This document shows, in pieces, positions 6,070 to 50,242 of a stretch of 64,000 nt of DNA. The first letter of the stretch is position 1; the number at the start of each line of letters is the position of its first letter. Below the pieces are notes generated by a model. It saw only the letters and a program-made list of their open reading frames with translations, had not been told where the DNA came from and did no database searches. Origin of the DNA: Saccharopolyspora erythraea NRRL 2338 (lineage in GTDB: Bacteria; Actinomycetota; Actinomycetes; Mycobacteriales; Pseudonocardiaceae); the NCBI RefSeq assembly GCF_000062885.1, contig NC_009142.1, positions 3,523,584 through 3,587,583 on the forward strand, in the 5' to 3' direction. Both the position numbers and the translations under genes were made by a program.

Positions 6070-6075
6070 CGGGTA

Positions 6076-6957: not shown

Positions 6958-7129
6958 GTGAGTCCCCCAGGAAGTTCGACGTGCGGAAAGCAGCTCACAA
7001 GCTAGTTGATCGAAGTGTCCGGTGTGTGCGAATCACTTCGGCCGGGATGTGAAGCCGCTCATGCGCGGGAAGGCGAGCGGGAGTGGTCCGGAGTGGACGG
7101 AGCAGCCGACGCCGCGGCGATGTCGCTGG

Positions 7130-7942: not shown

Positions 7943-8063
7943 CGGTACCACCCTCCTCGACCGGTGGAGATCATATCGCCGCGGACTTCGGCACGGCGGA
8001 AAACCCCAGGTCCTGGGCTGTGTGGAGGAACGCTGTGCCGCCGGAAGCCGTACCGCGGGCGGG

Positions 8064-9120: not shown

Positions 9121-9148
9121 CTCGGTCTCCTCTCGACAGCCACCCTGT

Positions 9149-9181
9149 TGACCGCCGCGGCGGCGTTGCCCGCGGCGGTCA
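9149..9181 (-). terminator. Hairpin overlapping the permease stop codon
   Basis: A 12-bp perfect stem TGACCGCCGCGG / CCGCGGCGGTCA with a 9-nt loop overlaps the permease stop (9179-9181) and lies 28 nt before the TTG of the dehydrogenase. It could terminate or attenuate transcription into the broken gene. Confidence 0.6.
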
Positions 9182-10564: not shown

Positions 10565-10745
10565 CGTGTCCTCCTCCGGGAACGGCGGTGTTCCCCGTCG
10601 TGTTGCGACTCCGCGGTCCTGACCGGTGCTCGGGCGGTGACCGGGCGACCCCTGGAGTGTGGCGACCGAACGTCCGGGACCGGGCCGGCGCACGCCTGGA
10701 GTGTGCGCCACGGCACAGCCGGACGAGTGAGCAACTGTATAGTCC

Positions 10746-10755
10746 TGTATATACA
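10746..10755. promoter_or_regulatory. HutC-type operator TGTATATACA
   Basis: This perfect 10-bp palindrome fits TGTA-N2-TACA, the core reported for HutC repressors. It lies between the repressor gene (stop at 11056) and the permease it probably controls, with an overlapping half copy CTGTATAG just upstream (10735-10742). A direct repeat of CCTGGAGTGTG occurs at 10651-10661 and 10695-10705, closer to the permease start. No gene is credible in the 491-bp interval 10565-11055. Confidence 0.6.
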
Positions 10756-11055
10756 TCTGCGTCAAGGGGCGGTGGCAGCGAGCGCCGGCCGAACTCCGTG
10801 GGTTGTAGATCTTGGTTCGGAGTGGTGGCGGACGTGGTTGACGGGAGTTTCTGCCGCAGGAGCTGGGGATACGGATTCGGCTCGACCTGCTGGCGGCGGT
10901 TGGCCGAGTGGCAACAGGCCGGGGTGCAGGCAAGCCTGCGACGACCTGCACGACGGCTTCCTCCAATGCCGACTGCATGATCCTCGCAGCAGAACTCCCC
11001 GCCCACGCTTTCTGAAATGAACCCGGAGTGGTGAGCCGCGAGGCAGCCCCGCCGG

Positions 11056-11811
11056 TCACTGCGGGTCGAAGGCGCCCTCCAGCCGGTACCGCGAACCCGG
11101 GTGCAGCAGCCTCGCCGCGCTGACCAGCACGCCTTCCGACCACGTGCGGCGGTGGATCAGCAGGCAGGGCTCGGAAGCGTCGATGCCCAGCGCGGCGCAG
11201 TCCTCCGCGGTGCCCAGCACCGCCTCCACCACGTGCTCACCCCGGCCCAGGGGCGCGATCCTCGAGAGGTAGTCGTTCGGCGTGCGCTCGGTGAAGTCCT
11301 GGGCCAGGTAGTCGGGGGCCAGCGCCGGGTTGACGTGCCGGTCCTCCAGCTGGATCGCCACGTCCTCCTCGAAGTGCACTATCCGCGAGTGGAAGACCGG
11401 GCCGCCCTCCGCGATGCCGAACAGCCCGTGCACCCTCGCGTCGGCGGGCTCCTCCCGCACGAGCAGGACGTCGGTCCGGTGCCGGTGCCCCCTGCGGCTC
11501 ACCTCGTCGGCGATGTTGCGGACCTCCACCAGCGCCGAGCTGCCCTTGCGCTCGGCGACGAACGACCCGACGCCCGCGTGGCGCACGACCACGCCCTCGG
11601 CGCTCAGCTCCCGAAGTGCGCGGTTGATCGTCATCCGCGAGAGCCCCAGCGACTGCACCAGCATGCTCTCCGACGGCAGCAACTCGCCCTCCGGCCACCG
11701 GCCGCTGCTCACCTGCTCGACGATCAGGTCCTTGAGCCGCTGGTAGGCCGGGGCGGCTCCGGGTGAGCTCGCCCTGAACAGCGCGGCGACGTCCATCGCG
11801 TCAATGGCCAC
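11056..11811 (-). CDS. hutC: GntR/HutC-family repressor, HutC-like
   Basis: 251 aa. The N-terminal winged helix-turn-helix (about 20-90; [25 protein letters not shown]) is followed by a UTRA effector domain. The segment [18 protein letters not shown] then [12 protein letters not shown] and the C-terminal [13 protein letters not shown] are the strongest matches I know to histidine-utilisation repressors, which bind urocanate. The start is GTG 11811; an ATG 15 nt later is possible. No hut catabolic genes are in view, so it may control only the neighbouring permease unit. Confidence 0.82.
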
Positions 11812-11952
11812 ACTGGATCACCGCCCGGCTGCTCGGTCACGTCCGTCCGGGCGAGTCTATCCGGCCGGGCGGCACGGTAGGGCTGACGAGGCGGTTCGGC
11901 TCGACGCGGCGGTTCGGCCTGGTGCGGCGCCACAGTGGACGGAATCGTCGTG

Positions 11953-12412
11953 TCAGAAGCCGTACTGCAGGACGAGCGGCAGGTCGTGGTCGCGGAGGCG
12001 GTCGAGCACCAGCCGCTCGTGCGGAACGGTGGAGTCGGGCAGCGAGTCCAGCGGGAACCACCGCAGCTCAGCCGCCTTGTCCGGCTCGAGCCGGCGCGGC
12101 TGCGTCCCACCGCCGGTATTCGAAGAAGAAGTCGACGCGTTCGTCGATCGGCCGGCCGCGCTTGGTGCGGTGCATGACCGTGAGCGGGACGAGGTCATCG
12201 GGTGCCACCGCGATGCCGAGCTCCTCGGCGACCTCCCGGCGCGCCGCCTCGGTGACCGGCTCGCCCTTCTCCACGTGCCCGGCCGCGCCCCACGCCCAGT
12301 GGCCGTCCATGTAGCCGGTGTTGCGCCGCAGTTGCAGCAGCACCTGACCCGGGTGCTCCCCGCTGCGGAACAGCACGTACACCGACGGCACGACCTGGAA
12401 GCGCTTGCGCAT
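11953..12412 (-). pseudogene. Nudix hydrolase, frameshifted
   Basis: The ATG at 12412 opens MRKRFQVVPSVYVLF and the Nudix box GHVEKGEPVTEAARREVAEELGI is complete (GX5EX7REUXEEXGU). Just after FFFEYRRWD, near 12110, the frame is lost and would stop at 12068. The expected C-terminal half (PRRLEPDKAAELRWFPLDSL then PDSTVPHERLVLDRL) continues in another frame to a stop at 11953. Net one extra or two missing bases at GACGCAG explain it. The box itself is intact, so a truncated product of 114 aa could still be made, but it would lack the last strands and helix. Substrate unknown; nucleotide-sanitising roles are typical. Confidence 0.78.
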
Positions 12413-12622
12413 GAGGACGAGCCTAGACGCGGTCGGGTCGTCGTCGGACGGGGCGAAGCGGGTGAATCATGGGGAGTGACCCCGCGGGATGACATGTCGT
12501 CGACAAGGGCGACGCGAGATCGGAGAAACAGCCGTCCGGCTCATCGCTGATGAACAGCCGGGTGTCGAACATCCTTGGGGGGCAACGCCGAAATCTCGGC
12601 CCCCGCAACCCCTCGGATGCGG

Positions 12623-12670
12623 TGCTTCACGGTGCTTTCCCACTAGTGGAAGGGAAAGCACCGCGAAGCA
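12623..12670 (-). terminator. Strong hairpin after the DUF4239 gene
   Basis: The inner 11-bp stem GGTGCTTTCCC / GGGAAAGCACC (12631-12641, 12652-12662) extends outward to a 19-bp stem with one mismatch (TGCTTC / GAAGCA at the ends) and a 10-nt loop. It lies 22 nt after the stop of the leftward gene that ends at 12692. The rest of 12413-12691 holds nothing I recognise. Confidence 0.75.
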
Positions 12671-12691
12671 GGGCGGCGACCACGTGCGGGT

Positions 12692-13471
12692 TCACGCCCC
12701 GGTCAGCAGGGTGCCCTCGAAGCTCTCCAGCGCGGTGCGGAAAGGCCCGGGCTCGACCCCGAAGGGGCCGTGCAGCGGATGCATCAGCTGCAGCGAGACG
12801 AAGATCGTGAAGCCGAGGGTGAGCGTCAGCAGCACCATGGTCGCGATGTTGGCCGCGGTCGGGCTGATACCGATCAGCAGCGGGAAGGTCACCATGAGCA
12901 GCGCGCCGATGATGCTGGCCACCAGCAGCACCGTGTTGAAGACCTGGTCGTCGGTGGCCTGCTCGACCCGCTCCCGGTGGTTCTCGTCGATCACGCGGAT
13001 GTTCTGCAGGGCCTGCTCCCGCGCGGACTTCTGCTGCTCGGTGTCGGCGGGCAGGTCGGTCACCTCCGCGCGCATGGACGCCAGGACCGCGTCCACCTCC
13101 GGGTCGGTGCGGCCCTGGTCCAGCGCCGCCCACTCGTGCTCGGCGACGCGGGTCGCGTAGCGCGCCGCCAGCGACCGGATCGTCGACGCCGCGGGCTCGG
13201 GTGCCGAGCTCACCTGCCAGTACGTGTCGGTGAGCGCGTTGGCCTCGGTGGTCGACGCCTTCTCGATGTCGTCGCCGTCCTGCCAGGCGAACACGATGTA
13301 GAACGCGAGCACGACGGTGAACAGCGCGTTGAGCACGCCGCCGACGAACGACAGCGAGTCGGAGTCGGAGTCAGGACGGGTCGGGCCGGCTCTTTTCCGG
13401 CGCTTGCCCAGGACCAGCAGTCCCGCGACGAGGAGGGCGGGCAGGACGACGACGAGCAGCATGAGGAACAA
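12692..13471 (-). CDS. Bestrophin-like DUF4239 membrane protein
   Basis: About 259 aa. Two N-terminal helices (LFLMLLVVVLPALLVAGLLVL and LNALFTVVLAFYIVFAW), an alpha-helical soluble middle with EANAL, and two C-terminal helices (VASIIGALLMVTFPLLIGI, TMVLLTLTLGFTIFVSLQLM) fit the DUF4239 pattern. No good start is visible: TTG 13471 is given, ATG 13462 is the alternative, and both have weak ribosome sites. The family is suspected to form ion channels, but the role here is unknown. It is divergent from the surface protein gene. Confidence 0.75.
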   Translation of the reverse strand: MFLMLLVVVLPALLVAGLLVLGKRRKRAGPTRPDSDSDSLSFVGGVLNALFTVVLAFYIVFAWQDGDDIEKASTTEANALTDTYWQVSSAPEPAASTIRSLAARYATRVAEHEWAALDQGRTDPEVDAVLASMRAEVTDLPADTEQQKSAREQALQNIRVIDENHRERVEQATDDQVFNTVLLVASIIGALLMVTFPLLIGISPTAANIATMVLLTLTLGFTIFVSLQLMHPLHGPFGVEPGPFRTALESFEGTLLTGA

Positions 13472-13858
13472 CTTGAGATCCCGGATTTCTCGTGCAGACG
13501 GGGAATCACGGCGGACGAGTCGATGCGCCGTGCGGTCGCGCAGCGCGCGACACCGCGATGGTAGCCCCGGCCGGGAGCCGGAAAAGCCTTGTGCGGAACC
13601 GGATCCGCCAACTTCATCAGTTCGAGTGATCTTGGATTGCGGCCTCGGCCGCGCGACGCCATTCCGACCGGCCCACCGAACCCGAGAAAACAGCCCGGGA
13701 GCTGGACATACGCCTTCGGTGCTGCGGTCAAACCCGGCTGCGTGCAAAGGGATTTCCGGCGGATAACGTCGACCGCGTCGACTTCCCAGCAGACCCGTCG
13801 CCGGGCACCGGCAGGTGCACCCGGCGTGGTCGCGTTCCGAATCAGGGGCTCGTTTCCG
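13472..13858. other. Divergent intergenic region, no gene seen
   Basis: This is 387 bp between the leftward DUF4239 gene and the rightward surface-protein gene. It is less GC-rich than the flanks. No family motif or well-placed ribosome site was found on either strand; it presumably holds the two promoters. Confidence 0.5.
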
Positions 13859-15472
13859 GTGATCCGTTCGAGGAGAACACGTGCGCTGGCCGCCAGCGGC
13901 ATCCGGCTGTCGCTGGTGCTGCTGGCGAGCGCGTTCATGGTGGTGCCGGTGACCGCGTCGCGGGACGTGCCGGTGCGCAGGCTCGACGAGGGCCACCAGG
14001 CCCGGACGGGCTCGGTGACGGTGGGAGACCGGCTCGGTGGCCGTGGCTCCTCGTCGGCGCGGCTGGACCTCCCGGCCGGCGCGAGGATCGTCGAGGCCGA
14101 CCTCACCTGGACCGGCACCGACGCCCACTGCGGGGCCGGAGCCGGATGGCTGCTCTCCACGGGCCTGCAGGCCCCTTCGCTGGTCCTCGGTTCGACGCGG
14201 GTCAGCCCGCAGAGCGTCACCGCGGGGGCCGGTGGGCGGCCGTCGTCGGCCCGCGCCGACGTGTTCGACGAGCTCGCCCGCCTCGTCGGCGACCGCGGAG
14301 TGACGGTGGTCGTCGGTGGACCTTCGTGCGTGGAGGGGTGGTCCCTGCACGTCGTCTGGACGATCGAGGTCCCCGACCCGGCGATCTCGGCCGCCGGCCG
14401 GATCGACCGCGGGTCGGCGCACCCCGGGGACGTGGTGAGCCACGACGTGGTGGTCACCAACACCGGTGGAACGGAACTGCACGACGTGCTGGCGGAGTTC
14501 GACATCGGCGCCGGATGCCGCAAGCCCCTCGGGGTCCTCGCGCCAGGAGCGACGGTTCCGGTCTCATGCGCCGGCGCGGTCGGCGAGCGCGACGCGCCGG
14601 TGGCGGCCCGGGTCCGGGGAACCAGCGCCGACGGCAGGACGGTGACCGCCCGGACCGCGGACGTCGTCCGCGTGCTGCGCCCGGCCCTGGAGCTGGCGGT
14701 CGCGCGGCAGCACGGCATGGTGCTGGAGGGCGACGACGCGGTGCACGAGCTGACGCTCCGCAACAGCGGCAACACCGAACTTTCCGGGCTGTCGCTGACC
14801 GGAGACGGCGCGCGGTGCGGTCCACCGCCGGTGACCCTGGGGCCGGGCGAGCGACGGCAGATCCGCTGCTCTGTCCGGGCGGGTTCGGGTGAAGCCGTGA
14901 GCAACCTGACCGCGTCCGGACGCGACGCACTCGGCGCGGTGGCGGCGGATTCGTCATCGGTCACGACGAAGGGCGTGCGCCCGAGCATCGCCCTGGAGGT
15001 CTCCGAAGCCGGCACCGGGACCGACCGCGACGGCCGGGCGGAGGTCGACGTGCGGGTGCGCAACACCTCGCCCATCCCGCTGGACCGCGTCGTCGTCGGA
15101 GGTGAACCGGCGGACTGCCGCGAGGACATCGGGTGGCTCGACGCCGGTGAGAGCTCCGAGTACCGATGCCGGGTGGCGCGGGGCACCGCCGTCGCGCTGT
15201 CGGTGTCGGGTCGGCCGGTGATCGACGGCGTGGTGGCCGATGTGAGCCACACCGTCCGGACCACGGCGGTCCTGCAGGTGACTTACGCCGTGAACCCGGG
15301 CCGTGCGGGCCGCCCCGCGGCGGCGGTCGTGCCGCAGGAGCGCGAGCGCGTGGGTGGCGGCGGGCCGCTCGAATCACCCGAGCGGACGGCGGGTTTCATC
15401 GGCATCCTCGGCGCGCTGGTGATGATGGTGAGCGTCGGAGCGCTCTCGACGGCGAGCCGCGCGAAGCGGTGA
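13859..15472 (+). CDS. Cell-surface protein with DUF11/CARDB-like repeats and C-terminal anchor
   Basis: About 537 aa from GTG 13859. A hydrophobic export segment (GIRLSLVLLASAFMVVPVTA) leads into a domain resembling the DUF3344-like start of surface proteins (ARIVEADLTWTGTDAHCGAGA). Two or more Ig-like DUF11 repeats follow, with the recurring NTGGTEL, NSGNTELSGL and NTSPIPLDRV turns and paired Cys. A C-terminal helix (GFIGILGALVMMVSVGAL) with basic tail SRAKR should anchor it in the membrane. It is likely a structural or adhesive envelope protein; no enzyme motif is visible. Confidence 0.75.
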   Translation: MIRSRRTRALAASGIRLSLVLLASAFMVVPVTASRDVPVRRLDEGHQARTGSVTVGDRLGGRGSSSARLDLPAGARIVEADLTWTGTDAHCGAGAGWLLSTGLQAPSLVLGSTRVSPQSVTAGAGGRPSSARADVFDELARLVGDRGVTVVVGGPSCVEGWSLHVVWTIEVPDPAISAAGRIDRGSAHPGDVVSHDVVVTNTGGTELHDVLAEFDIGAGCRKPLGVLAPGATVPVSCAGAVGERDAPVAARVRGTSADGRTVTARTADVVRVLRPALELAVARQHGMVLEGDDAVHELTLRNSGNTELSGLSLTGDGARCGPPPVTLGPGERRQIRCSVRAGSGEAVSNLTASGRDALGAVAADSSSVTTKGVRPSIALEVSEAGTGTDRDGRAEVDVRVRNTSPIPLDRVVVGGEPADCREDIGWLDAGESSEYRCRVARGTAVALSVSGRPVIDGVVADVSHTVRTTAVLQVTYAVNPGRAGRPAAAVVPQERERVGGGGPLESPERTAGFIGILGALVMMVSVGALSTASRAKR

Positions 15473-36556: not shown

Positions 36557-37348
36557 TCAGGGGCGGCTTTCGCGCAACGCGTTGACCTCGAGCCGCAGGG
36601 AGCGCAGCTCGGCGAGCAGTTCGGACTCGCCGTGCGTGCGCGGCGCGGGGATCTCGGCTTCCTCCTCCTTGATCTGCGACTCCATGGCGTTGACCACGAC
36701 CGCGATGAACAGGTTCAGCACGGTGAAGCTGGAGATCAGGATGTAGCCGACGAAGAACACCCACGCCAGCGGCTTGGTCTCCATGACGCTCTGCATGGTG
36801 TCCGCCCAGCCGTCACCCGTCATGATCTGGAACAGCGTCAGCAGCGAGGTGCCCAGGTCGCCGAAGTGCTCGCCATCGGCCTCGGAGAACAGCCTCGTGG
36901 CCATCACGCCCGCGACGTAGAGCACCAGCATCAGCAGCCCGACGATGGAGAAGACCCCCGGCAGCGCCTTCAGCAGGGCGGCGACGATCCGCCGCATGCT
37001 GGGGACCGTGGACAGCAGCCGCAGTGCGCGCAGGATGCGCAGGGACCGCACGACGGAGAACGCCGCCGAAGCGGGCAGCAGCGACAGCGACACGATCACG
37101 AAGTCGAAGTTGTTCCAGTGGTCGCGGAAGAACCGCCAGCCGTAGGCGTAGATCTTGGCCACGAGCTCGGCCACGAAGATGACGAGCGCGGTGCTGTCCA
37201 CCAGGCCTATCAGACCGCCGTAGCTCGCGGTCAGCGCCGAGGAGGTCTCGCAGCCGAGCGCGAGCGCGTTGACGACGATCACGGTGATGATCGACCACTG
37301 GAACCCGCGGGACTCGAAGACCGACCGGAGGCGCGCACGCAACGTCAC
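36557..37348 (-). CDS. Voltage-gated cation channel, NaChBac superfamily, atypical filter
   Basis: 263 aa, one six-helix subunit of a tetramer. S4 carries four spaced Arg (101, 104, 107, 110 in VVRSLRILRALRLL). The pore region FQIMTGDGWADTM places TGDGWAD (177-183) where sodium channels have TLESWAS. S6 is FTVLNLFIAVVVNAM, and a C-terminal acidic coiled coil (SELLAELRSLRLEVNALRE) would hold the tetramer. The Asp-rich filter suggests Ca2+ or unselective conduction rather than Na+ selectivity (inferred from known filter mutants). It is monocistronic, leftward, and abuts the biosynthetic operon tail to tail. Confidence 0.92.
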   Translation of the reverse strand: MTLRARLRSVFESRGFQWSIITVIVVNALALGCETSSALTASYGGLIGLVDSTALVIFVAELVAKIYAYGWRFFRDHWNNFDFVIVSLSLLPASAAFSVVRSLRILRALRLLSTVPSMRRIVAALLKALPGVFSIVGLLMLVLYVAGVMATRLFSEADGEHFGDLGTSLLTLFQIMTGDGWADTMQSVMETKPLAWVFFVGYILISSFTVLNLFIAVVVNAMESQIKEEEAEIPAPRTHGESELLAELRSLRLEVNALRESRP

Positions 37349-41528: not shown

Positions 41529-44500
41529 ATGGAACCCAGGACTTTGGACCCTGGGAATGGCCAACCCGTGCGCGCAACGGGGCCATCCCATGGTCGACTG
41601 CACGATTTCTTCACCACGACCTGCGACCGGACGCCCGGCAAGGTCGCGCTGGAGGCCGGTGACGTCCGGATGACCTACCGGCAGCTCGACAGGCGGGCCA
41701 ACCAGCTCGCGCACCACCTGCTCACCCTCGGTCTCGGGACCGGCTCGCGGGTGGGGATCCTGCTGGAGCGGTCCGCGTGGACCTACGTCAGCCTGCTGGG
41801 GGTGCTCAAGGCCGGTGCGGCGTTCGTACCCATCGACGCGGTCTCCCCTTCGGACCGGGTCGGCTACATCTGCGGCGACTCCCGGCTCGACCTGGTGATC
41901 ACCTCCGGTGACCTGGCCGGCAAGGTGGGCGGAGCCTGCCCGGTGCTCGACGTCGACCTGGTCGGGACGACGCTGGACCACACGCCCTCCACCAGGCCCG
42001 AGCTGCCCGACACCGCGGACCCGCCCGCCTACGTCATCTACACCTCCGGTTCGAGCGGCCGCCCCAAGGGCGTCGAGGTGTCGCAGTCCAGCATCTGCAA
42101 CTTCATCGACGTGGTGCCCGCGATCTACGACGTGCGCGAGTCCGACCGCGTGTACCAGGGCATGTCGATCTCGTTCGACTTCTCCATCGAGGAGATCTGG
42201 CCGACCTGGGCGGTGGGGGCGACGCTGGTGGCGGGCCCCAACGACTCGCGCAGGCTCGGCGAGGAGCTCGCCGAGTTCCTCGACGACAACGGCGTCTCGG
42301 TCCTGTACTGCGTGCCGACGCTGCTGGCCACCATCCACCGCGAGCTGCCGAAGGTGCGCAGCGTGCTGGTCGGCGGCGAGGCGTGCCCGGCCGAGCTCGT
42401 GGAGCGCTGGAGCACTCCCAAGCGGCGCATCCTCAACACCTACGGGCCGACCGAGGCCACGGTCACCGCGTCGTGGTGCGAGCTGCTGCCCGGCAGGCGA
42501 GTGACCATCGGACGCGCTCTGCCGACCTACACGGTGGTGCTGCTCGACGAAGCCTTGCATCCGGTACCGGATGGCGATGTCGGTGAGATATGCATCGGCG
42601 GACCCGGCGTGGCCAACGGCTACGTCGGCCTGCCGGAGAAGACCGCCGACCGGTTCGTCGAGCACCCGCTGGCGCCCCGCGGCGGACGGCTGTACCGCAC
42701 CGGCGACCTGGGCCGCACCACCGAGGACGGCGAGATCGAGTACCTCGGCAGGGCCGACGCCGAGGTCAAGATCCGCGGTCGCCGGGTCGACCTGGGCGAG
42801 ATCGACAACGTGCTGCTGGAGCACCCGGCGGTCTCCGGCGCGGTGACCGCGCTGACCGCCGACGGCATGGCGCTGGCGTCCTACCTGACCGTGCGCGGGG
42901 ATGCCGGCGACGAGCTGATCGCCGACCTGCACGACCGCGCCCGGGCGAAGCTGCCGGAGTACATGGTTCCCGCTCTGGTCGACGTGCTCGACGAGCTGCC
43001 GACGATGCCCAGCGGCAAGGTCCACCGCGCCCGGCTGCCCGCACCCAGCGGGAGGCGGTTCAGCGCGGGCGCGGGCGAGGTCGTCCCGCCCGAGACCGAC
43101 ATGCAGAAGCAGGTCGCGGTGGTGTGGGCGGAGGTCTTCGGCCTCGATCCGCGCGAGCTGTCGGTGGACGCGGACTTCTTCGGCGACCTCGGCGGGCACT
43201 CGTTGCTCGCGGCCAACGTCGTCTCGGCGCTGCGGGAGCGGCGCATCGGCGGCAGCCCGGCCGTGCGCGATCTCTACGCCCACCCGACCGTGCGGTCGCT
43301 GGCCGACCACCTGGACCGCGCACCCGCGCCCGCACCCGCCGACGCACCGGCGCGCCGGGTCGAGGCGGCGGTGCACCGGCGGCGCCGCACGGTGCCCGCC
43401 GGGCTCGCGCAGCTGGCGTTCCTCTACGTGTTGCTGCTGGTCGGCGTCATCCCGGTGGCTCTGGTCTACAGCCGCTACGACGGCGTCGTGGGCATCTCCG
43501 GAGTCCTCGGCGAGCTGGCGCTGGCGGCCCTGACGACCTACGTGGTGCTGCGGTGGGTGCTGCCGGTGCCGCTGGCCAGAGCGCTCGCGGCCGGGATACA
43601 CCCCGGCCGGTACCGGTTGTGGGGGCTGACCTACCTGCGGTTGTGGGCGCTGGACCTGGTGCTGACCCTGGCGCCGCTGCCCGCGCTCAGCGGGTCGCCG
43701 CTGTACGCGCCGTACCTGCGGCTGCTCGGCGCCCGCGTCGGACGGCGGACCCAGATCGCCACCAGCGCGATCTCGCTGCCCACCCTGCTCGACATCGGCG
43801 ACGACGCGAGCCTGGGCTACGACGTGCAGGTGCAGCCATGGGTCGTCGACGACGGCTGGGTGGTCGTCGAGCCCATCCGGGTCGGCGAGGACGCCTTCGT
43901 CGGTTCCAGCACGGTGCTGGAACCGGGTGCCTCGGTGGGAGCGGGGGCCGGCATCGCCGAGCATTCGGCGGTGGGTGGCCGCCAGGCCGTGCCACCGCAG
44001 CAGTGGTGGGCCGGCTCCCCGCTGGTCGAGGTGTCCAGGCCCGAACCGATGGTGCAGGCGATGGCCGAGCTGCCCACCGCCCCCGGCTGGCGGGCCGGTC
44101 CGCTGCTGGGCGCGGCGGGCGGGCTGCTGCTGCTCGAGCTCACCCTCATCGCCATGGTGCTGCCGAGCATCGTGATGGTGTGGGCGCCGCTGCTGCTGTG
44201 GGGAACGCTCGCCGGACTCGTCGCCGCGGCGCTGGTCGGTCCGGTGTTCGTGGTGACGGTCTGCGTGCTCGTGGCGTGCATCCGCCGGCTCGTGCTGCCG
44301 CGCACCGAGATCGGCATCCACCACGCGCGTTCCGGGCTCGGGGTGCGCAAGTGGATCGGGGACAAGCTGCTCGAGTCAAGCCTGGTCGCCACGAACTCGC
44401 TGTACGCCACGCTCTACACGGTGCCGTGGCTGCGGATGCTCGGCGCCCGCGTCGGGCGCGGTTCGGAAGTCTCCACTGCCGCGTACTTCGACCCGGCGCT

Positions 44501-45476
44501 GCTGACCCTCGGCGAGCAGAGCTTCGTGGCCGACATGGCCAGCATCGGTTCGGCCCGCTTCTACAACGGCTACGTCGGGTTCGCGCGGACCGCGATCGGG
44601 CGACGCTCGTTCGTGGGCAACGCCGCGTTCGTGCCGTCGGGCACCTCCACCGGTGACGGCTCGCTGCTCGGCGTGCACACCGTGCCGCCCGCGGCCGAGG
44701 TGCCCGCCGAGTCCTCGTGGCTGGGCTCGCCGGCGATCTTCCTGCCGCAGCGGCAGTCCAGCGGAACCTTCTCGGAGCGCACGACTTTCCGGCCGCCACC
44801 GCGGGCCGTGGTCGAGCGTTTGGCGATCGAGTACTTCCGCGTCACGATGCCGGCCTCGGTGCTGGCCGTGGCGGTGTACCTGACCCTGCTCGGGCTCTCC
44901 GAGCTGGCCGGCGCCACCGGCACGCTGGCCACGCTGCTGCTGGCACCGGTGCTGTTCGCGCTGGGCAGCGTGCTGGTGCTGCTGTTCGTCGTCGCGCTCA
45001 AGTGGGTGCTGGTGGGTGCCTACCGGCCGCGGATCGAACCGCTGTGGAGCAGGTTCGTGCGGCGGACCGAACTGGTGACAGGGGTGTACGAGGCCGCGGC
45101 GGTGCCCGCGCTGCTGGGCACGCTGACCGGCACGCCGCTGCTGCCGCCCGCGTTGCGGCTGCTGGGCACCAGGATCGGCAAGTGCGCCTGGATCGGCACG
45201 ACCTACCTCACCGAGTTCGACCTGGTCCACATCGGGCAGAACGCGACGGTGGGCAAGGGCGTGTCGTTGCAGACGCACCTGTTCGAGGACCGGGTGATGA
45301 AGATGTCGCAGGTGCGGGTCGGCGACGGCGCCACGGTCGGGGAGCGCTCGATCGTGCTCTACGACGCCGAGGTCGGCGTCGGCACCGCGCTGGAGTCGCT
45401 GTCGCTGGCGATGAAGGGCGAGCAGCTCACCCCGGGCACCCGGTGGCGGGGCATCCCGGCGCAGGGGGTCCTGTGA
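41529..45476 (+). CDS. Pls-type single-module NRPS (homopoly-amino-acid synthetase-like)
   Basis: 1315 aa. An adenylation domain (about 20-510; core motifs VIYTSGSSGRPKG, NTYGPTEATVT, YRTGDLGR, PSGKVHR) is followed by a carrier domain with the phosphopantetheine Ser558 in DLGGHSLLA. Then, instead of condensation or thioesterase domains, come membrane helices alternating with three left-handed hexapeptide-like domains (each opening LRLLGARVGR, LRMLGARVGRG, LRLLGTRIGK). Size and order match epsilon-poly-L-lysine synthetase (about 1319 aa), in which the C-terminal domains join carrier-bound and free amino acids. Read by hand, the A-domain pocket is D-F-E-Y-L-G-T-V-T-K (D217, F218, E221 first); the Glu fits a basic amino acid. 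It is the first gene of a six-gene operon. Confidence 0.9.
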   Translation: MEPRTLDPGNGQPVRATGPSHGRLHDFFTTTCDRTPGKVALEAGDVRMTYRQLDRRANQLAHHLLTLGLGTGSRVGILLERSAWTYVSLLGVLKAGAAFVPIDAVSPSDRVGYICGDSRLDLVITSGDLAGKVGGACPVLDVDLVGTTLDHTPSTRPELPDTADPPAYVIYTSGSSGRPKGVEVSQSSICNFIDVVPAIYDVRESDRVYQGMSISFDFSIEEIWPTWAVGATLVAGPNDSRRLGEELAEFLDDNGVSVLYCVPTLLATIHRELPKVRSVLVGGEACPAELVERWSTPKRRILNTYGPTEATVTASWCELLPGRRVTIGRALPTYTVVLLDEALHPVPDGDVGEICIGGPGVANGYVGLPEKTADRFVEHPLAPRGGRLYRTGDLGRTTEDGEIEYLGRADAEVKIRGRRVDLGEIDNVLLEHPAVSGAVTALTADGMALASYLTVRGDAGDELIADLHDRARAKLPEYMVPALVDVLDELPTMPSGKVHRARLPAPSGRRFSAGAGEVVPPETDMQKQVAVVWAEVFGLDPRELSVDADFFGDLGGHSLLAANVVSALRERRIGGSPAVRDLYAHPTVRSLADHLDRAPAPAPADAPARRVEAAVHRRRRTVPAGLAQLAFLYVLLLVGVIPVALVYSRYDGVVGISGVLGELALAALTTYVVLRWVLPVPLARALAAGIHPGRYRLWGLTYLRLWALDLVLTLAPLPALSGSPLYAPYLRLLGARVGRRTQIATSAISLPTLLDIGDDASLGYDVQVQPWVVDDGWVVVEPIRVGEDAFVGSSTVLEPGASVGAGAGIAEHSAVGGRQAVPPQQWWAGSPLVEVSRPEPMVQAMAELPTAPGWRAGPLLGAAGGLLLLELTLIAMVLPSIVMVWAPLLLWGTLAGLVAAALVGPVFVVTVCVLVACIRRLVLPRTEIGIHHARSGLGVRKWIGDKLLESSLVATNSLYATLYTVPWLRMLGARVGRGSEVSTAAYFDPALLTLGEQSFVADMASIGSARFYNGYVGFARTAIGRRSFVGNAAFVPSGTSTGDGSLLGVHTVPPAAEVPAESSWLGSPAIFLPQRQSSGTFSERTTFRPPPRAVVERLAIEYFRVTMPASVLAVAVYLTLLGLSELAGATGTLATLLLAPVLFALGSVLVLLFVVALKWVLVGAYRPRIEPLWSRFVRRTELVTGVYEAAAVPALLGTLTGTPLLPPALRLLGTRIGKCAWIGTTYLTEFDLVHIGQNATVGKGVSLQTHLFEDRVMKMSQVRVGDGATVGERSIVLYDAEVGVGTALESLSLAMKGEQLTPGTRWRGIPAQGVL

Positions 45477-46063
45477 TGCGCGCACCGGTCTCGCTCAACC
45501 TGATCGACCTGGACCTGGCACCCGTCCCGGCCGGTCACGCCGCCGCGCACGACGCCGGTGGCCCGGCGCCCGCGCGCCGCTCGCTCGCGGCGCGGGACGC
45601 GTTGCTGGAGGTGCTGTCGGACGTTCTCGGCCATCGCCCGGACGAGGGCGCGGTCCGGCCTGGGACGCCCTGCGACGGGGTGTTCTTCAGCGAGGCCCGA
45701 CGCGACGAGCGGTACCTGGTCGGCACGTCGACGTGGTATCCGCTTGGTGTGGAGTGCAAGTCCGCGGTGCCCGGTCGTCCGCCCCCGCTGGTGGAGCGGC
45801 TGCTGCCCGCCGGGGAGCGGCGGGAGGTCGCCCGGCTGCCCGCCGCGGCGCGTCCGCTGGCGTTCGCGCTGTGCTGGTGCCGGATGGTCGCCGCGGTCAA
45901 GGCCTGCGGCGCGGCGCTCGACGACGCGGCGCACTGCATGGCCGCGACCTCGCAATGGGCCGCCGTCGTCGCCCCGGGGCTGGTGGCGGGCGCCGCCGTG
46001 CTCACCGAGCGGGGGATCGACGTGCGGTGGCGCACCACCGCCTGGGAGAAGGACGCGTCATGA
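45476..46063 (+). CDS. 4'-phosphopantetheinyl-transferase-like protein with altered active site
   Basis: 195 aa; the ATG shares a base with the synthetase stop (TGATG). It can be aligned with Sfp-type transferases: YPLGVECKS stands for the GVDhE metal motif, and WCRMVAAVKACG (W134 to G145) for WxxKEAxxKxxG. The catalytic Lys-Glu pair is Met137-Val138, and the metal Asp is Glu, although Lys142 remains. It may be a pseudoenzyme or a divergent partner of the carrier domain. The assignment rests on the motif frame and the position next to a carrier-domain enzyme. Confidence 0.6.
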   Translation: MRAPVSLNLIDLDLAPVPAGHAAAHDAGGPAPARRSLAARDALLEVLSDVLGHRPDEGAVRPGTPCDGVFFSEARRDERYLVGTSTWYPLGVECKSAVPGRPPPLVERLLPAGERREVARLPAAARPLAFALCWCRMVAAVKACGAALDDAAHCMAATSQWAAVVAPGLVAGAAVLTERGIDVRWRTTAWEKDAS

Positions 46064-46728
46064 GACGACCACTGGCACTGGTGTACCGGGGGCCCGCGGC
46101 CAAACCGGTGGAGTGCTCCGAGGCGGCGGCCGAGTTGCTCAGCAGCTCGCCGCGGCGCTTCGACGTCTGCTACGTCGGTCCGAAGGAGCGGCTGGAGATC
46201 AGCCCGCGGACGTTGGCTTCGGCGACGCTCTACATCCAGCCCGGCGGCGGCGGGCTCAAGCGCGGCTACCGCGCGATGAAGTCCTACAAGAAGGTGATCC
46301 GCGAGTTCGTCGGGGACGGCGGCCGTTACGTGGGGTTCTGCCTGGGGGGCTACCTCGCCGGTGCGTCACCCGGTTTCGCACTGCTGCCGGGGGATACCGA
46401 CCAGTACATCTCGACCTGCGGCGCGACCGTGAGGTCAACTGACGAGACGGTCGTGGAGGTGCTCTGGCGGGGCCGGGCGCGCTACCTGTACTTCCAGGAC
46501 GGTGCGATGTTCCTGCTGCGCCCGGACGCCCGAGGTGTCGACGTGCTGGCCAGGTACCGCAGCGGGGAGATCGCCGCGCTGGCGGCCCCCTTCGGTGCGG
46601 GACGGGTGGCCGTGGCCGGACCGCACCCGGAGGCCACATCCGACTGGTTCGAGGACGCCGGCCTGCACGTTCCGGGCGGGTCGGGCTTCGACCTCGGGCA
46701 CGACCTCATCGAGGCGGTGATGGCTTGA
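46060..46728 (+). CDS. BPL_N / class I glutamine-amidotransferase-like protein
   Basis: 222 aa, ATG 46060 in an ATGA overlap. The fold matches the biotin-protein-ligase N-terminal family: an oxyanion strand YIQPGGGG, the nucleophile elbow YVGFCLGGYLAG with Cys94, and the His189-Glu191 pair in AGPHPEAT. The triad is complete, so a hydrolase or amidase activity is possible. No substrate is known for the family. Its co-translation with a polymer synthetase suggests a step on an amide or amino group of the product (inferred). Confidence 0.78.
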   Translation: MRRPLALVYRGPAAKPVECSEAAAELLSSSPRRFDVCYVGPKERLEISPRTLASATLYIQPGGGGLKRGYRAMKSYKKVIREFVGDGGRYVGFCLGGYLAGASPGFALLPGDTDQYISTCGATVRSTDETVVEVLWRGRARYLYFQDGAMFLLRPDARGVDVLARYRSGEIAALAAPFGAGRVAVAGPHPEATSDWFEDAGLHVPGGSGFDLGHDLIEAVMA

Positions 46729-46729
46729 G

Positions 46730-48214
46730 ATGAGCAGGACCTCCAGGGGGCTGCTGGCCATCGGTTCGGCCTGCTTGCTGGTGACCGCGGTCGCCTGCGC
46801 GCCGGAGGCCACCGACCAGCCGTGGCCGCAGCGGCCGGTGGTCGACCTGGACTACCGGGTCGCCGACGACCTGAGCTCGGTGACCGGTCGGGAGCGGGTG
46901 GTGTTCACCCCGGACATGCGGGTGTGCGAGCTGGTCTTCCGCCTGTGGCCCAACGAGCCGACCGCGGCGCGCACCGGTACCTCGATCGTGGTGACCGGTG
47001 CGTCGGTCGACGGCAGGCCCGTGGCACCGCGGCCGTCGGCGGACGCCGCCGCCGGATCGCAGGGCACGCTGGTCGAGCTGCCGCTGGGCCGCTGCGTGCA
47101 GGCGGATGACGCGGTGACGGCCGTGCTGGACTTCCGGCTGACCCTCGGGCGGGACTCCGGCGAGCGGTGGGGCTACCTGCCATCCCGCGAGATGGCGTGG
47201 TTCGGCAACGGCTTCCCGCTGCTGCCGTGGGTGCGGGGGCAGGGCTGGGCCCGCGACGCCGCCACGGTGATCCCGGGGGAGACGGCCACCAGCGAGGACT
47301 TCGACCTGGCATCGCTGTCGGTGACCGCGCCGTCGCGGCTGACCGTGTTCGGCACCGGGACCCGCAGGGCGGCCGAGTCGGGCCGGGCACCGGGCACCAC
47401 CATCCACCACTTCGCCGCCGACGCGGTGCGCGACGTCCTGGTGACGGTCGGGAACCTCGACGTGCTGGAGCGAACGGTCAGCGGGGTGCAGATCCGGCTC
47501 GCCACGCCGAAGCCCGGCCGCAACGGCGACGGCAACGGGAATGGGAACGGGGACGGAGAGGGAGAGGGAGAGGGAGAAGGCAACGGCAACGGCAAGGGGA
47601 CGAAGGTGTCCCCGCAGCGGTGGATGGAGGAGCTCTCCGACGAGCTGCGCGCCCTGCAGCACCTGCTCGGGCCGCTGCCGTACCGGGACCTGTGGGTGAC
47701 CGTCGTGCCGACGATCGGCGACGGCGTCGAGTTCCCGAGCGCGCTGCTGTTCGGCGACCTGCGGCGCAGGGAGGTGCGCTCGCTGGTCGCCCACGAGCTC
47801 GGCCACCAGTGGTTCTACGCGCTGGTCGGAAACAACCAGGCGCGCGACCCGTGGATCGACGAGTCCTTCACGACGTTCGCGCAGGCGCTGGTGGTCGGCC
47901 AGCAGGACGACTACCGGCTGGAGGATGTTCCGCAGGGCGTCGTCGGGCACCTCGGCGAGCCCATGGAGTACTGGGGGCGGACCGGCGGCTACGACAACTA
48001 CGTGGCCGGGGTGTACCAGCAGGGGGCGGCGGTGCTGCTGGAGGCGCGCAGGCGGGCGGGACCCCATCGGTTCGACAGGGCCCTGCGCGACTACGTGGCC
48101 CGTTCGGCGCACCGCGTGGTCGGGCCCAGGGACGTTTTCGCGGCGTTCCAGGACCTGCCGCAGGTGACCGACCTGCTCAGGCAGTACGGAGTGCGTGAAG
48201 GGGGAAACAGGTGA
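46730..48214 (+). CDS. Lipoprotein M1-family zinc metallopeptidase
   Basis: 494 aa. A signal peptide ends in a lipobox (VTAVAC, Cys23), so it is anchored outside the membrane. After a beta-rich M1 N-domain comes a 26-residue Gly/acidic repeat. The catalytic domain follows, with the substrate-strand GVEFPSALLF, HELGH (His355, His359) and the third ligand Glu 19 residues on in WIDESF. M1 enzymes are aminopeptidases. A membrane-bound Zn aminopeptidase is known to degrade epsilon-poly-lysine in its producer, so trimming or self-protection is a reasonable role here. Confidence 0.88.
   Translation: MSRTSRGLLAIGSACLLVTAVACAPEATDQPWPQRPVVDLDYRVADDLSSVTGRERVVFTPDMRVCELVFRLWPNEPTAARTGTSIVVTGASVDGRPVAPRPSADAAAGSQGTLVELPLGRCVQADDAVTAVLDFRLTLGRDSGERWGYLPSREMAWFGNGFPLLPWVRGQGWARDAATVIPGETATSEDFDLASLSVTAPSRLTVFGTGTRRAAESGRAPGTTIHHFAADAVRDVLVTVGNLDVLERTVSGVQIRLATPKPGRNGDGNGNGNGDGEGEGEGEGNGNGKGTKVSPQRWMEELSDELRALQHLLGPLPYRDLWVTVVPTIGDGVEFPSALLFGDLRRREVRSLVAHELGHQWFYALVGNNQARDPWIDESFTTFAQALVVGQQDDYRLEDVPQGVVGHLGEPMEYWGRTGGYDNYVAGVYQQGAAVLLEARRRAGPHRFDRALRDYVARSAHRVVGPRDVFAAFQDLPQVTDLLRQYGVREGGNR
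47522..47599 (+). repeat. In-frame simple repeat coding for (N/D/E/K)-Gly dipeptides
   Basis: 78 nt of 6-bp units (mainly AACGGC/GACGGC and GAGGGA) encode 26 residues, alternating Gly with Asn, Asp, Glu or Lys, inside the M1 peptidase. The GGAGAG core is nearly perfect and prone to length change. Confidence 0.85.
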
Positions 48215-49002
48215 ACACGAGGCTGCTGGTGTCGGACGCGGAGCACTTCCGGATCGACTACGAGATCAACCCGTACATGACGACGGACAACCAGCCCGAC
48301 ACGGCGCTGGCCGTCGCCGAGCACAAGGCGATCCTGGAGGCGCACCTCAACGCGGGCCGGTTCCTGGAGCACGTGCCGTCGGAGCCGGAGTGCCCGGACA
48401 TGGTCTACGTGGCCAACTCCGCGCTGGTCTGCGGCGGCCGCGCCGTGCTGGGCAGCCTTCCCGCGGCCCGCAGGCCGGAGACCCGCCACCACCGGCGCTG
48501 GTTCGAGCGACTGGGCCTGGAGGTGATCGACGCGCCGTTCGCGTTCAGCGGCCAGGGAGACGCCCTTCCCTGCGGCGGGTTGCTGTTCGCGGGCAGCGGG
48601 TGGCGGACCGATCCCCGCATGCACGGGTTCCTGCGCCGCAGGCTCGGCTACGAGGTCGTGTCCCTGCGGACGGTCAACGACCACTGGTACGACATCGACC
48701 TCGCCGTCGCGGTGCTGGACCAGCGCACCGTCGCCTACTGCCCCCAGGTGCTGGACGAGCCCAGCAGGCGCCGCATCCGCGGGCTGGGCCTGGACCTCAT
48801 CGAGGTGCCGGTCGCCGAAGCCGAGCGCTTCGCGCTGAACCTGGTCAGCGACGGGGCGAGCGTCACGATGGCCTGCGGCGCCCCGGAGTTCGCGGGTGAG
48901 CTGCGGGCCCGCGGGTTCACCGTGTTCGAGCTGGACATCACCGAGCTGGCCAAGGGCGGTGGGGGAGTCCGCTGCACATCGCTCACGCTGGACAACCCGT
49001 GA
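48211..49002 (+). CDS. Dimethylarginine-hydrolase / arginine-dihydrolase-like protein
   Basis: 263 aa, GTG 48211 in a GTGA overlap. It belongs to the guanidino-group-modifying superfamily: YVANSALVCGG (the N-terminal arm), FSGQGDAL (substrate carboxylate site) and the nucleophile Cys255 in GGGGVRCTSLTL. The usual FYHLD, which holds the catalytic His, reads WYDID (Asp161), though a His lies three residues earlier (DHWYDID). Relatives turn arginine derivatives into citrulline or ornithine. In this operon it could supply or process the amino acid that is polymerised (inferred). Confidence 0.75.
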   Translation: MNTRLLVSDAEHFRIDYEINPYMTTDNQPDTALAVAEHKAILEAHLNAGRFLEHVPSEPECPDMVYVANSALVCGGRAVLGSLPAARRPETRHHRRWFERLGLEVIDAPFAFSGQGDALPCGGLLFAGSGWRTDPRMHGFLRRRLGYEVVSLRTVNDHWYDIDLAVAVLDQRTVAYCPQVLDEPSRRRIRGLGLDLIEVPVAEAERFALNLVSDGASVTMACGAPEFAGELRARGFTVFELDITELAKGGGGVRCTSLTLDNP

Positions 49003-49015
49003 CAGGACGGTGGGG

Positions 49016-50242
49016 ATGAACCTGGACGAGACGACCATCTCCGGGCGCAGCCACCCCGCGCAGCCCAAGGCCCGGCGTCTGCGCGGGGTGGATGCCACCC
49101 GCGGGATCGCGCTGGTCGGGATGATGGGCGTGCACGCGCTGTACACCGGCGACCTCGACGAGGGCCCCGCCCTCTGGTACTCGGTCGCCGGTGGACGCGC
49201 CGCGGCGACCTTCGCGGTGCTCGCGGGGTTGGGCATCGCGTTCAGCACCGGCCGCGAGCGGATCCGGCCGGGCGCGCAGGGCTGGTCGATCGCGGCGTCG
49301 CTGACCGTCCGGGCGCTGGCCATCGCCTTCATCGGCCTGGCGCTGGGCTACTCCGACCCCGACATCGCCGACGTGATCCTCACCTACTACGGCGTGCTGT
49401 TCCTGCTCGCGATCCCGCTGGTGTTCCTCAGCACCCGCGCGCTGGCGGTCACCGGCGTGGCCGTCGCGCTGCTGATGCCCGTGGTGAGCATGCCGCTGCG
49501 GGTCCTGCTGCCCGCCCCCCGGCTGGAGAACCCGACCTTCGCGTGGCTGTTCTCCGACCCGCTCGGGCTGCTGGCGGAGATCCTGCTGACCGGCGTCTAC
49601 CCGGTGCTGCCCTGGACGACCTACCTGTGCGCCGGGCTGCTGCTGGGGCGGCTGAGGCTGTCGACGGTGCGCACCGCGTGGCGGCTGCTGGTGGGCGGCA
49701 CGGCACTGGCCGCCGGCGCGTGGCTGGTGTCCTGGTCGCTGCTGCGGCCGCTCGGCGGCCTGGAGAAGATCACCGAAGCAGGGGAGGCCGCGGGCATGCC
49801 CTCCGGCGCCGTCGACTACATCGTCGCGTTCGGACCCACGGGCAACCCGCCCACCTCGTCGTGGTGGTGGCTCGCGCTGTGCTCCCAGCACTCGGCGACG
49901 CCGTCAGACCTGCTGCACACCACCGGCGTCGCGGTCGGGCTGCTGGGTCTGATGCTGCTGCTCGCGCACGTGTCGAACCCGAACTACCGGTTGGCGCTGG
50001 ACGCCTTCATCGAGCCGCTGGCCGCGGCGGGATCGATGACGCTGACCCTCTACAGCGCGCACGTGGTGTTCATGAACTCGCCGCTGGACGTCTTCGACGA
50101 GGAGCTCAGCCTCGCGATCCAGGTCCTGGTCGCGGTGTTCTTCGCGCTGCTGTGGCAGCACCACGTCGGCCGGGGACCGCTGGAGTCCGGCGTCACCTGG
50201 CTGTCCAAGAAGGCCCGCACCGCGGTCGAACACCGCGCGTGA
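49016..50242 (+). CDS. DUF418 / acyltransferase-3-like membrane protein
   Basis: 408 aa, about ten helices. The start RLRGVDATRGIALVGMMGVHA is the DUF418/DUF1624 opening. The C-terminal AAGSMTLTLYSAHVVFM and the last helices match DUF418. Members are poorly understood; some modify extracytoplasmic groups with acyl chains, others are suspected transporters. ATG 49016 is 13 nt after the previous stop; a perfect hairpin closes the operon. Confidence 0.82.
   Translation: MNLDETTISGRSHPAQPKARRLRGVDATRGIALVGMMGVHALYTGDLDEGPALWYSVAGGRAAATFAVLAGLGIAFSTGRERIRPGAQGWSIAASLTVRALAIAFIGLALGYSDPDIADVILTYYGVLFLLAIPLVFLSTRALAVTGVAVALLMPVVSMPLRVLLPAPRLENPTFAWLFSDPLGLLAEILLTGVYPVLPWTTYLCAGLLLGRLRLSTVRTAWRLLVGGTALAAGAWLVSWSLLRPLGGLEKITEAGEAAGMPSGAVDYIVAFGPTGNPPTSSWWWLALCSQHSATPSDLLHTTGVAVGLLGLMLLLAHVSNPNYRLALDAFIEPLAAAGSMTLTLYSAHVVFMNSPLDVFDEELSLAIQVLVAVFFALLWQHHVGRGPLESGVTWLSKKARTAVEHRA

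What the first reader, a model, noticed from the sequence alone, without database searches (positions are those of the whole stretch)
41529..50242. Six-gene operon built around a Pls-type homopoly(amino acid) synthetase
The first gene has the rare A-PCP-membrane-(hexapeptide domain)x3 architecture of epsilon-poly-lysine synthetase and almost the same length. Five more genes follow with overlaps or gaps of 13 nt or less: a PPTase-like protein, a BPL_N/GATase-like protein, a lipoprotein M1 peptidase, a guanidino-modifying enzyme and a DUF418 membrane protein. This set suggests synthesis, tailoring, export-side trimming and self-protection for a cationic isopeptide polymer whose monomer may not be lysine. 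I know of no characterised product with this gene set.
Basis: partly seen in the sequence, partly recalled or inferred. Interest (0 to 1): 0.87.

Follow-up and report, generated by a model that had tools for sequence, protein, structure and literature searches.

The report
Predicted poly-diaminopropionate-type polymer operon
A six-gene stretch in a Saccharopolyspora-like bacterium encodes an enzyme of the family that strings small diamino acids into positively charged chains, and several of its partner genes recur next to the same enzyme type in other actinobacteria, which points to a shared but, as far as I could find, undescribed way of finishing or controlling such polymers.

Summary
The operon is real. 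Gene 1 (41529-45476) is a Pls/PosA-family synthetase: A domain, PCP, TIGR02353 terminal domain at 566 bits (cut-off 423). Its pocket code DFEYLGTVTK differs from the Lys code (DAESIGTVVK) and the Dat/Ask-linked Dab code (DFECLSAVTK). It falls in a 22-row clade (100/99) with the only non-Lys TIGR02353 gene found in Streptomyces noursei A-2-1, the species under which NCBI files the poly-Dap producer PD-1. L-2,3-diaminopropionate is thus the likeliest monomer, by elimination.

Searching with gene 1, of 77 readable loci 54 carry glutaminase-like gene 3, 37 HGSNAT-like gene 6, 19 M1 peptidase gene 4 and 13 arginine-dihydrolase-fold gene 5. All 18 Lys-type control loci have the M1 peptidase; none has 3, 5 or 6.

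Two labels need correcting. The "PPTase" lacks the usual acidic residues. The "guanidino-modifying enzyme" keeps its Cys, but the expected His is Asp and the expected Glu is missing. I judge this a new variant of a known kind.

The parts
41529..45476 (+). Gene 1: Pls/PosA-family membrane-bound single-module synthetase, 1315 aa
   Evidence: TIGR02353 566 bits over the 423.1 cut-off; clade with the S. noursei non-Lys enzyme
41586..43037 (+). adenylation domain, pocket code DFEYLGTVTK (residues 217,218,221,260,280,282,304,312,313,497)
   Evidence: residues 217, 218, 221, 304 and 313 carry the same numbers as the ligand contacts of PosA (PMC10522769, passages)
43110..43313 (+). carrier (PCP) domain with DLGGHSLL, Ser present
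   Evidence: PF00550 55.7 bits
43407..45461 (+). NRPS terminal domain (membrane segments and C1-C3 region)
   Evidence: TIGR02353 residues 627-1311; six hydrophobic stretches in gene 1, five of them between residues 620 and 1167
45476..46063 (+). Gene 2: 195-aa PPTase-like protein lacking the usual acidic residues (GVDxE -> GVECK, WxRKE -> WCRMV)
   Evidence: PF01648 22.7 bits, below cut-off; alignment with 9 PPTases from other gene-1 loci
46060..46728 (+). Gene 3: class-I glutamine-amidotransferase-fold protein (BPL_N), C94-H189-E191
   Evidence: 39 of 39 members hit BPL_N; the three residues are invariant in 39 rows; model pLDDT 95.8, best structural matches Pdx2 and HisH-type glutaminases
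46730..48214 (+). Gene 4: M1 metallopeptidase, putative lipoprotein, HELGH at 355 with Glu378
   Evidence: PF01433 50.5 bits; lipobox by eye
48211..49002 (+). Gene 5: arginine-dihydrolase/DDAH-fold protein with Cys255 but Asp161 at the catalytic His position and Ser113 at or beside the catalytic Glu position
   Evidence: model closest to ArgZ, TMq 0.88
49016..50242 (+). Gene 6: HGSNAT-type polytopic membrane acyltransferase-like protein
   Evidence: PF07786 43.8 bits, cut-off 22

Best explanation
This is a biosynthetic operon for a cationic isopeptide polymer of a short diamino acid, most likely beta-poly-L-2,3-diaminopropionate (Dap). Shown from sequence: gene 1 has the parts needed for the Pls cycle (adenylation, loading on its own carrier, membrane-embedded polymerisation region), has the pocket of a class that is neither the Lys nor the Dab class, and belongs to a lineage in which a GATase-fold protein (54 of 77 loci) and an HGSNAT-like membrane protein (37 of 77) often accompany it. 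Inferred: (1) L-Dap is adenylated and polymerised at the membrane. (2) Gene 6 works on the polymer at the membrane, most likely moving an acetyl group from cytosolic acetyl-CoA onto free amines (capping or self-protection). (3) Gene 4, anchored outside, trims polymer as PldII does for epsilon-PL. (4) Gene 3, with an apparently intact Cys-His-Glu site, hydrolyses an amide or thioester: either glutamine, to supply ammonia, or the chain end, for release. (5) Gene 5 probably binds an amino-acid-like ligand but cannot use the normal guanidine-hydrolase chemistry. Gene 2 is probably a non-catalytic PPTase relic or accessory.
For: TIGR02353 566 bits. Code DFE[YC]xGTVTK in 80 of 80 named relatives kept by the scan. 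PosA study: Phe at position 2 marks poly-Dap/poly-Dab synthetases, Ala lysine, Met ornithine (PMC10522769, passages). S. noursei A-2-1 shows 2 TIGR02353 genes at E 1e-60: one Lys-type with M1 peptidase (L208), the other in gene 1's clade. NCBI taxonomy returns S. noursei for S. albulus and lists PD-1 as its strain; PD-1's PDAP synthetase EXU85975.1 was proven by disruption and heterologous expression (PMC4668381, passages). S. celluloflavus and S. olivoreticuli each carry a Lys type, a Dat/Ask-linked Dab type and the gene-1 type, so the third type plausibly has a third monomer. The genome encodes two SbnA and two SbnB homologues over cut-off. Neighbours: genes 3, 6, 4 and 5 in 54, 37, 19 and 13 of 77 against 0, 0, 18 and 0 of 18 Lys controls.
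Against: I could not compare with EXU85975.1 itself. Its ORF is 4,338 bp (1445 aa) while the S. noursei A-2-1 open frame is 1422 codons, so identity with PDAPs is by elimination. No Dap-making gene lies in the operon (SbnA/SbnB queries find nothing in window 34001-58000). The two SbnA/SbnB sets of this genome sit in other NRPS clusters, and SbnB was not found in S. noursei A-2-1 or S. celluloflavus at E 1e-60. SbnB co-occurrence in the family is modest (26 of 33 genomes against 135 of 261) and uncorrected for kinship. 23 of 77 gene-1 loci have no gene 3 in the run, so it is not always needed there. Against a release role for gene 3: recombinant Pls by itself makes glycerol and PEG esters of its product in vitro (PMC9606270, passages), so a Pls enzyme may release chains without a partner; and the Dab type lacks gene 3.
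Confidence: 0.6

Rival explanations
1. Gene 1 makes a poly-2,4-diaminobutyrate (Dab) variant, the neighbouring class, with Dab drawn from ectoine or other metabolism.
For: The two Dab-type enzymes (L204, L205) join gene 1's clade with 99/98 support, share Phe at position 2, and have a gene-6 relative in or beside the cluster.
Against: No Dat or Ask homologue at E 1e-20 in window 34001-58000; code differs at positions 4, 6 and 7 (Y,G,T against C,S,A); S. celluloflavus and S. olivoreticuli carry both types.
Confidence: 0.15
2. Gene 1 polymerises an arginine- or ornithine-derived monomer made by gene 5.
For: Gene 5 has the arginine-dihydrolase fold; a Pls relative with an arginine-preferring A domain exists (PMC10522769, section 11 read).
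Against: Gene 5 has Asp where the catalytic His is expected and no Glu, invariant in 17 of 17 aligned members. It is in 13 of 77 loci, although the pocket class is the same with and without it. Phe at position 2 is the short-chain residue in the PosA study.
Confidence: 0.08
3. The product is not a plain homopolymer: genes 3 and 6 (and 5 where present) make a tailored polymer, for example comb-like, acetylated or C-terminally amidated poly-Dap.
For: Gene 3 keeps its Cys-His-Glu site and goes with gene 1's class and some other non-lysine classes, not the Lys type. A comb-like Dap polymer is on record (a reference title seen in PMC9606270).
Against: No chemistry has been tested; pdaps expressed alone in S. 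lividans fed with L-Dap gave PDAP (PMC4668381, passages); recombinant Pls ends its own chains on glycerol or PEG (PMC9606270, passages); the Dab type lacks gene 3 and a beta-Lys-like type (L076) has it, so gene 3 does not simply follow monomer length.
Confidence: 0.22
4. The operon is decayed and makes nothing.
For: Genes 2 and 5 lack residues expected for catalysis.
Against: Six open frames with tight coupling; genes 1-5 are 92-98% identical in the same-genus relative; gene 5's altered residues are invariant across 17 aligned members, which fits selection.
Confidence: 0.05

Closest known systems
beta-poly-L-diaminopropionate synthetase (PDAPs, S. albulus PD-1; PMC4668381)
   Same: architecture, no TE or C domain; gene 1 is in one clade with the only non-Lys TIGR02353 gene found in S. 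noursei A-2-1
   Different: sequence not compared directly; accessory genes not described in the passages read
epsilon-poly-L-lysine synthetase Pls with PldII (PMC8117764)
   Same: same terminal domain and length; M1 peptidase partner
   Different: pocket DAESIGTVVK; 18 of 18 control loci lack genes 3, 5 and 6
gamma-poly-Dab synthetase cluster (pls-dat-ask type, here S. celluloflavus L204)
   Same: neighbouring clade, Phe at position 2, gene-6 relative present
   Different: Dat and Ask genes; code DFECLSAVTK; no gene 3
delta-poly-L-ornithine synthetase PosA (PMC10522769)
   Same: named in the TIGR02353 description; same Asp and Glu pocket anchors
   Different: Met at position 2; ornithine
ArgZ/AgrE arginine dihydrolase and DDAH
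   Same: fold and Cys position
   Different: gene 5 has Asp at the His position and no Glu at the Glu position
Pdx2 and HisH-type class-I glutaminases
   Same: fold and Cys-His-Glu site
   Different: 16-19% identity in the best matches; no synthase partner known

Membership tests
Pls/PosA-family synthetase (TIGR02353) | terminal domain over curated cut-off | tested here: met
   566.2 bits against 423.1
Pls/PosA-family synthetase (TIGR02353) | A domain plus PCP with attachment Ser, no condensation or thioesterase domain | tested here: met
   Pfam rows (E 0.01)
Pls/PosA-family synthetase (TIGR02353) | Asp and Glu at code positions 1 and 3 | tested here: met
   D217, E221
Pls/PosA-family synthetase (TIGR02353) | makes an isopeptide polymer | not testable with these tools
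   needs assay
poly-L-Dap synthetase | shared clade with the poly-Dap producer's enzyme | tested here: inconclusive
   clade support 100/99 with the S. noursei A-2-1 enzyme; EXU85975.1 itself not available
poly-L-Dap synthetase | activates L-Dap | not testable with these tools
   needs assay
epsilon-poly-lysine synthetase | Lys pocket (Ala at position 2) | tested here: not met
   Phe218 against Ala in 18 of 18 Lys controls
gamma-poly-Dab synthetase cluster | dat and ask beside the synthetase | tested here: not met
   no homologue at E 1e-20 in window 34001-58000
Sfp-type PPTase (gene 2) | acidic residues in GVDxE and WxxKE (role recalled) | tested here: not met
   GVECK, WCRMV
guanidino hydrolase ArgZ/DDAH (gene 5) | Cys-His-Glu catalytic set (roles recalled) | tested here: not met
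   Cys255 kept; His is Asp161; Glu aligns with Ser113 in ArgZ and with a gap beside it in the paralogue; invariant in 17 rows
class-I glutamine amidotransferase fold (gene 3) | Cys-His-Glu triad | tested here: met
   invariant in 39 rows
class-I glutamine amidotransferase fold (gene 3) | glutaminase activity | not testable with these tools
   needs assay
M1 peptidase, Pld-like (gene 4) | HEXXH and downstream Glu | tested here: met
   H355ELGH, E378
M1 peptidase, Pld-like (gene 4) | cleaves the polymer | not testable with these tools
   needs assay
HGSNAT membrane acyltransferase (gene 6) | PF07786 over cut-off | tested here: met
   43.8 bits against 22
HGSNAT membrane acyltransferase (gene 6) | transfers acetyl across the membrane | not testable with these tools
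   needs assay

The most novel reading that the evidence does not exclude
The recurring cassette is a dedicated finishing system for a class of non-lysine cationic isopeptides. Gene 3 is a release or chain-end enzyme of these TE-less synthetases (hydrolysis or amidation at the carrier-bound end), gene 6 acetylates or branches the chain across the membrane, and gene 5 is an arginine-dihydrolase fold rebuilt for a new reaction on the amino-acid monomer. The true product would then be a tailored polymer, not plain poly-Dap.
Probability: 0.22. Interest if true: 0.72.

Novelty: new variant of a known kind. Interest (0 to 1): 0.52.

Why it matters
The poly-Dap study says that how the chain is released from its TE-less synthetase remains to be determined (PMC4668381, passages). 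A recurring partner set that separates this synthetase class from the lysine type gives concrete candidate genes for release and modification, and the organism appears to be the workhorse erythromycin producer (recalled from genome length), where deletions are routine (recalled).

Tried and rejected
Gene 5 as a source of ornithine or citrulline: set aside because the catalytic His position is Asp and the Glu is missing. Gene 2 as the priming PPTase: set aside on residues; PPTases that keep the motifs do lie near gene 1 in nine other loci (8 of one cluster plus L164). SbnB co-occurrence as proof of Dap: modest, and not found in S. noursei A-2-1, so not used as proof. BPL_N as biotin-related: the best folds are glutaminases. 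Self-BLAST for the triplicated region gave nothing. A PDB profile search with gene 3 gave only weak hits (best E 0.025, an imidazole glycerol phosphate synthase chain). Paper searches for ArgZ residues gave nothing that I used. A first reading of pocket codes picked wrong-strand frames in several loci (L018, L023, L029, L032-L037); those rows were not used, and the 20 control loci were read again.

Error corrected: gene 6 was first taken one base early (49015), so its rows and the 'g6' query were out of frame. The gene-called product and the family clusters were in frame. The profile was rebuilt and gave the same 80 hits.

Full report
Setting. The window is bases 3523584-3587583 of a single-contig genome of 8,212,805 bp. 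I recall that length as that of Saccharopolyspora erythraea NRRL 2338; no tool named the organism.

The observation. Six same-strand reading frames with overlaps or gaps of 13 bases or less are present. Gene 1 carries an AMP-binding domain, a carrier domain with the attachment serine and a TIGR02353 terminal domain at 566.2 bits, against a curated cut-off of 423.1. The genome has one other TIGR02353 gene over cut-off.

Which monomer. The ten pocket positions (placed from recalled GrsA positions; their numbers agree with PosA's) read DFEYLGTVTK. All 80 named relatives kept from a scan with a profile of gene 1 read DFE[YC]xGTVTK. Of 20 control loci around other TIGR02353 genes of the family, 18 read DAESIGTVVK, the lysine type; the other two (L234, L235) are another type that sits with SbnA/SbnB genes. 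Two synthetases beside diaminobutyrate transaminase and aspartate kinase genes (L204 S. celluloflavus; L205 S. olivoreticuli) read DFECLSAVTK; the L204 pair was scanned, the L205 pair assigned by similarity. The PosA study states that position 2 tracks chain length: Phe in poly-Dap/Dab, Met in ornithine, Ala in lysine enzymes (PMC10522769, passages and sections 10 and 11 read). In a 37-row tree gene 1 lies in a 22-row clade (100/99); the two Dab-type enzymes join it with 99/98; the lysine type is far off (the tree is rooted at the midpoint only, and the program warned of long branches around the lysine rows). Streptomyces noursei A-2-1 shows two TIGR02353 genes at E 1e-60: one lysine-type, 1319 aa, with an M1 peptidase, and one in gene 1's clade. 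The taxonomy returns S. noursei for S. albulus and lists PD-1 as its strain. In PD-1 the poly-Dap synthetase was proven by disruption and by expression in S. lividans fed with L-Dap (PMC4668381, passages). By elimination the gene-1 orthologue is the poly-Dap synthetase. Two facts cut against certainty: I could not align EXU85975.1, and its stated length (4,338 bp) exceeds the 1422-codon open frame in A-2-1. S. celluloflavus and S. olivoreticuli carry Lys, Dab and gene-1 types together, which argues that the third type has its own monomer.

Supply of Dap. The genome has two SbnA and two SbnB homologues over cut-off, both sets inside other NRPS clusters. In the family, SbnB is found in 26 of 33 genomes that I scored as carrying gene 1's type and in 135 of 261 others (Fisher p 0.003). 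The 33 were reached through gene 3, so genomes with gene 1 but no gene 3 count among the others, and kinship is not corrected for. S. noursei A-2-1 and S. celluloflavus show none at E 1e-60 (the model does ring), and the PD-1 paper proposes serine plus ornithine as precursors (passage). So supply is compatible with Dap but proves nothing.

Conservation of the neighbours. Two directions were used. Searching with gene 3, 42 of 294 family genomes, the window's own included, have a homologue. In 44 fetched loci plus the window, 37 of 45 have a gene-1 relative within six genes, 31 a gene-6 relative, 20 gene 4 and 9 gene 5; eight gene-3 loci have no synthetase nearby. Searching with gene 1 instead, 77 of 81 loci (80 plus the window) had a gene 1 that my gene caller could read. 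In the same-strand run below it (gaps up to 200 bases) 54 carry gene 3, 37 gene 6, 19 gene 4 and 13 gene 5. Twenty runs were empty; some end at a contig edge (L126), and two (L118, L139) have gene 3 beyond a longer gap. The two sets share genomes and must not be added. Control: of 20 loci around other TIGR02353 genes, the 18 lysine-type ones all have the M1 peptidase next to the synthetase and none has genes 3, 5 or 6 in the fetched 15.8-19 kb. Gene 2 appears only in the window and its same-genus relative. The set is patchy: 252 of 294 family genomes have no gene-3 homologue at E 1e-8.

What each partner is. Gene 3: 39 of 39 aligned members hit BPL_N; Cys94, His189 and Glu191 are invariant. 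The model (pLDDT 95.8) matches Pdx2 best, then HisH-type glutaminases (best E 1.4e-9), so it looks like an active class-I amidotransferase-type hydrolase. Gene 3 does not simply follow monomer length: it is also beside a synthetase whose pocket, DGESVSVVNK, is one letter from the poly-beta-lysine code quoted in PMC10522769 (L076) and beside four DFECLSVV[TS]K enzymes, but not in the two Dab loci. Gene 4: M1 peptidase with HELGH-X18-E and a lipobox-like start (lipobox by eye). Lysine clusters pair Pls with PldII, which the cited paper says was shown to degrade epsilon-PL (PMC8117764, Results read). Gene 5: model closest to ArgZ (TMq 0.88). Where ArgZ and the genome's own DDAH paralogue (424.6 bits) have His, gene 5 has Asp161. 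The ArgZ glutamate aligns with Ser113; in the paralogue alignment the Glu faces a gap beside it. Both residues and Cys255 are invariant in 17 rows. The catalytic roles of these positions are recalled. A guanidine hydrolase is therefore unlikely; which other reaction it could run is open. Gene 6: HGSNAT_cat 43.8 bits; relatives lie in or beside the two Dab clusters and in the SbnA/SbnB cluster L234. Gene 2: PPTase-like, yet GVDxE is GVECK and WxRKE is WCRMV in both genomes that have it, while nine PPTases near gene 1 elsewhere keep the motifs.

Mechanism. Shown from sequence: an intact-looking synthetase of a distinct pocket class, with a recurring partner set that the lysine type lacks apart from the M1 peptidase. 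Inferred: L-Dap is loaded and polymerised at the membrane, gene 6 modifies free amines using cytosolic acetyl-CoA, gene 4 trims outside, gene 3 hydrolyses glutamine or the carrier-bound end, and genes 5 and 2 play binding or accessory roles. Against a release role, recombinant Pls by itself forms glycerol and PEG esters of its product (PMC9606270, passages). I put the Dap reading at 0.6 and the 'finishing system' reading at 0.22.

Print. Searches in the open-licence library listed papers on the polymers and synthetases; none of the passages or sections I read described genes 3, 5 or 6 as partners. Closed papers and supplements were not searched.

Noticed in passing
L217 (own genome C1:3294000-3313900), 5759-15267: The genome's second TIGR02353 protein (807 aa by my gene call, no A domain; a carrier-like start by eye) sits with SbnA, SbnB, a protein that looks TauD-like by eye and a large NRPS-like protein; a similar set with a gene-6 relative is in L234. 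It looks like a separate Dap-using assembly line.
   Followed up: partly
L076: A Pls-type gene with pocket DGESVSVVNK, one letter from the poly-beta-lysine code quoted in PMC10522769, has a gene-3 homologue directly downstream.
   Followed up: no
L074, L083, L084, L085, L086, L087, L090, L091: Eight gene-3 homologues stand without a synthetase within six genes; their role is unknown.
   Followed up: no
L166, L169, L172, L174, L180, L184, L185, L187, L164: PPTase genes that keep the usual motifs lie near the gene-1 relative; seven of the nine are in Modestobacter or Geodermatophilus.
   Followed up: partly
L186: A metagenome bin titled Nostocales encodes a gene-1 relative with the same pocket class, apparently outside actinobacteria.
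   Followed up: no
L205, L206, L131 (Streptomyces olivoreticuli): One genome carries three Pls types: Dab-like with Dat/Ask, Lys-like with M1 peptidase, and the gene-1 type.
   Followed up: partly
window 36557-37348 (-): By eye, a single-domain voltage-gated ion-channel-like protein (pore stretch TLFQIMTGDGWAD); not searched.
   Followed up: no
L097, L098, L101, L103, L107 and several Micromonosporaceae loci: Two gene-3 copies flank the gene-6 relative (order 1-3-6-3, or 1-5-3-6-3), suggesting paired or specialised copies.
   Followed up: no
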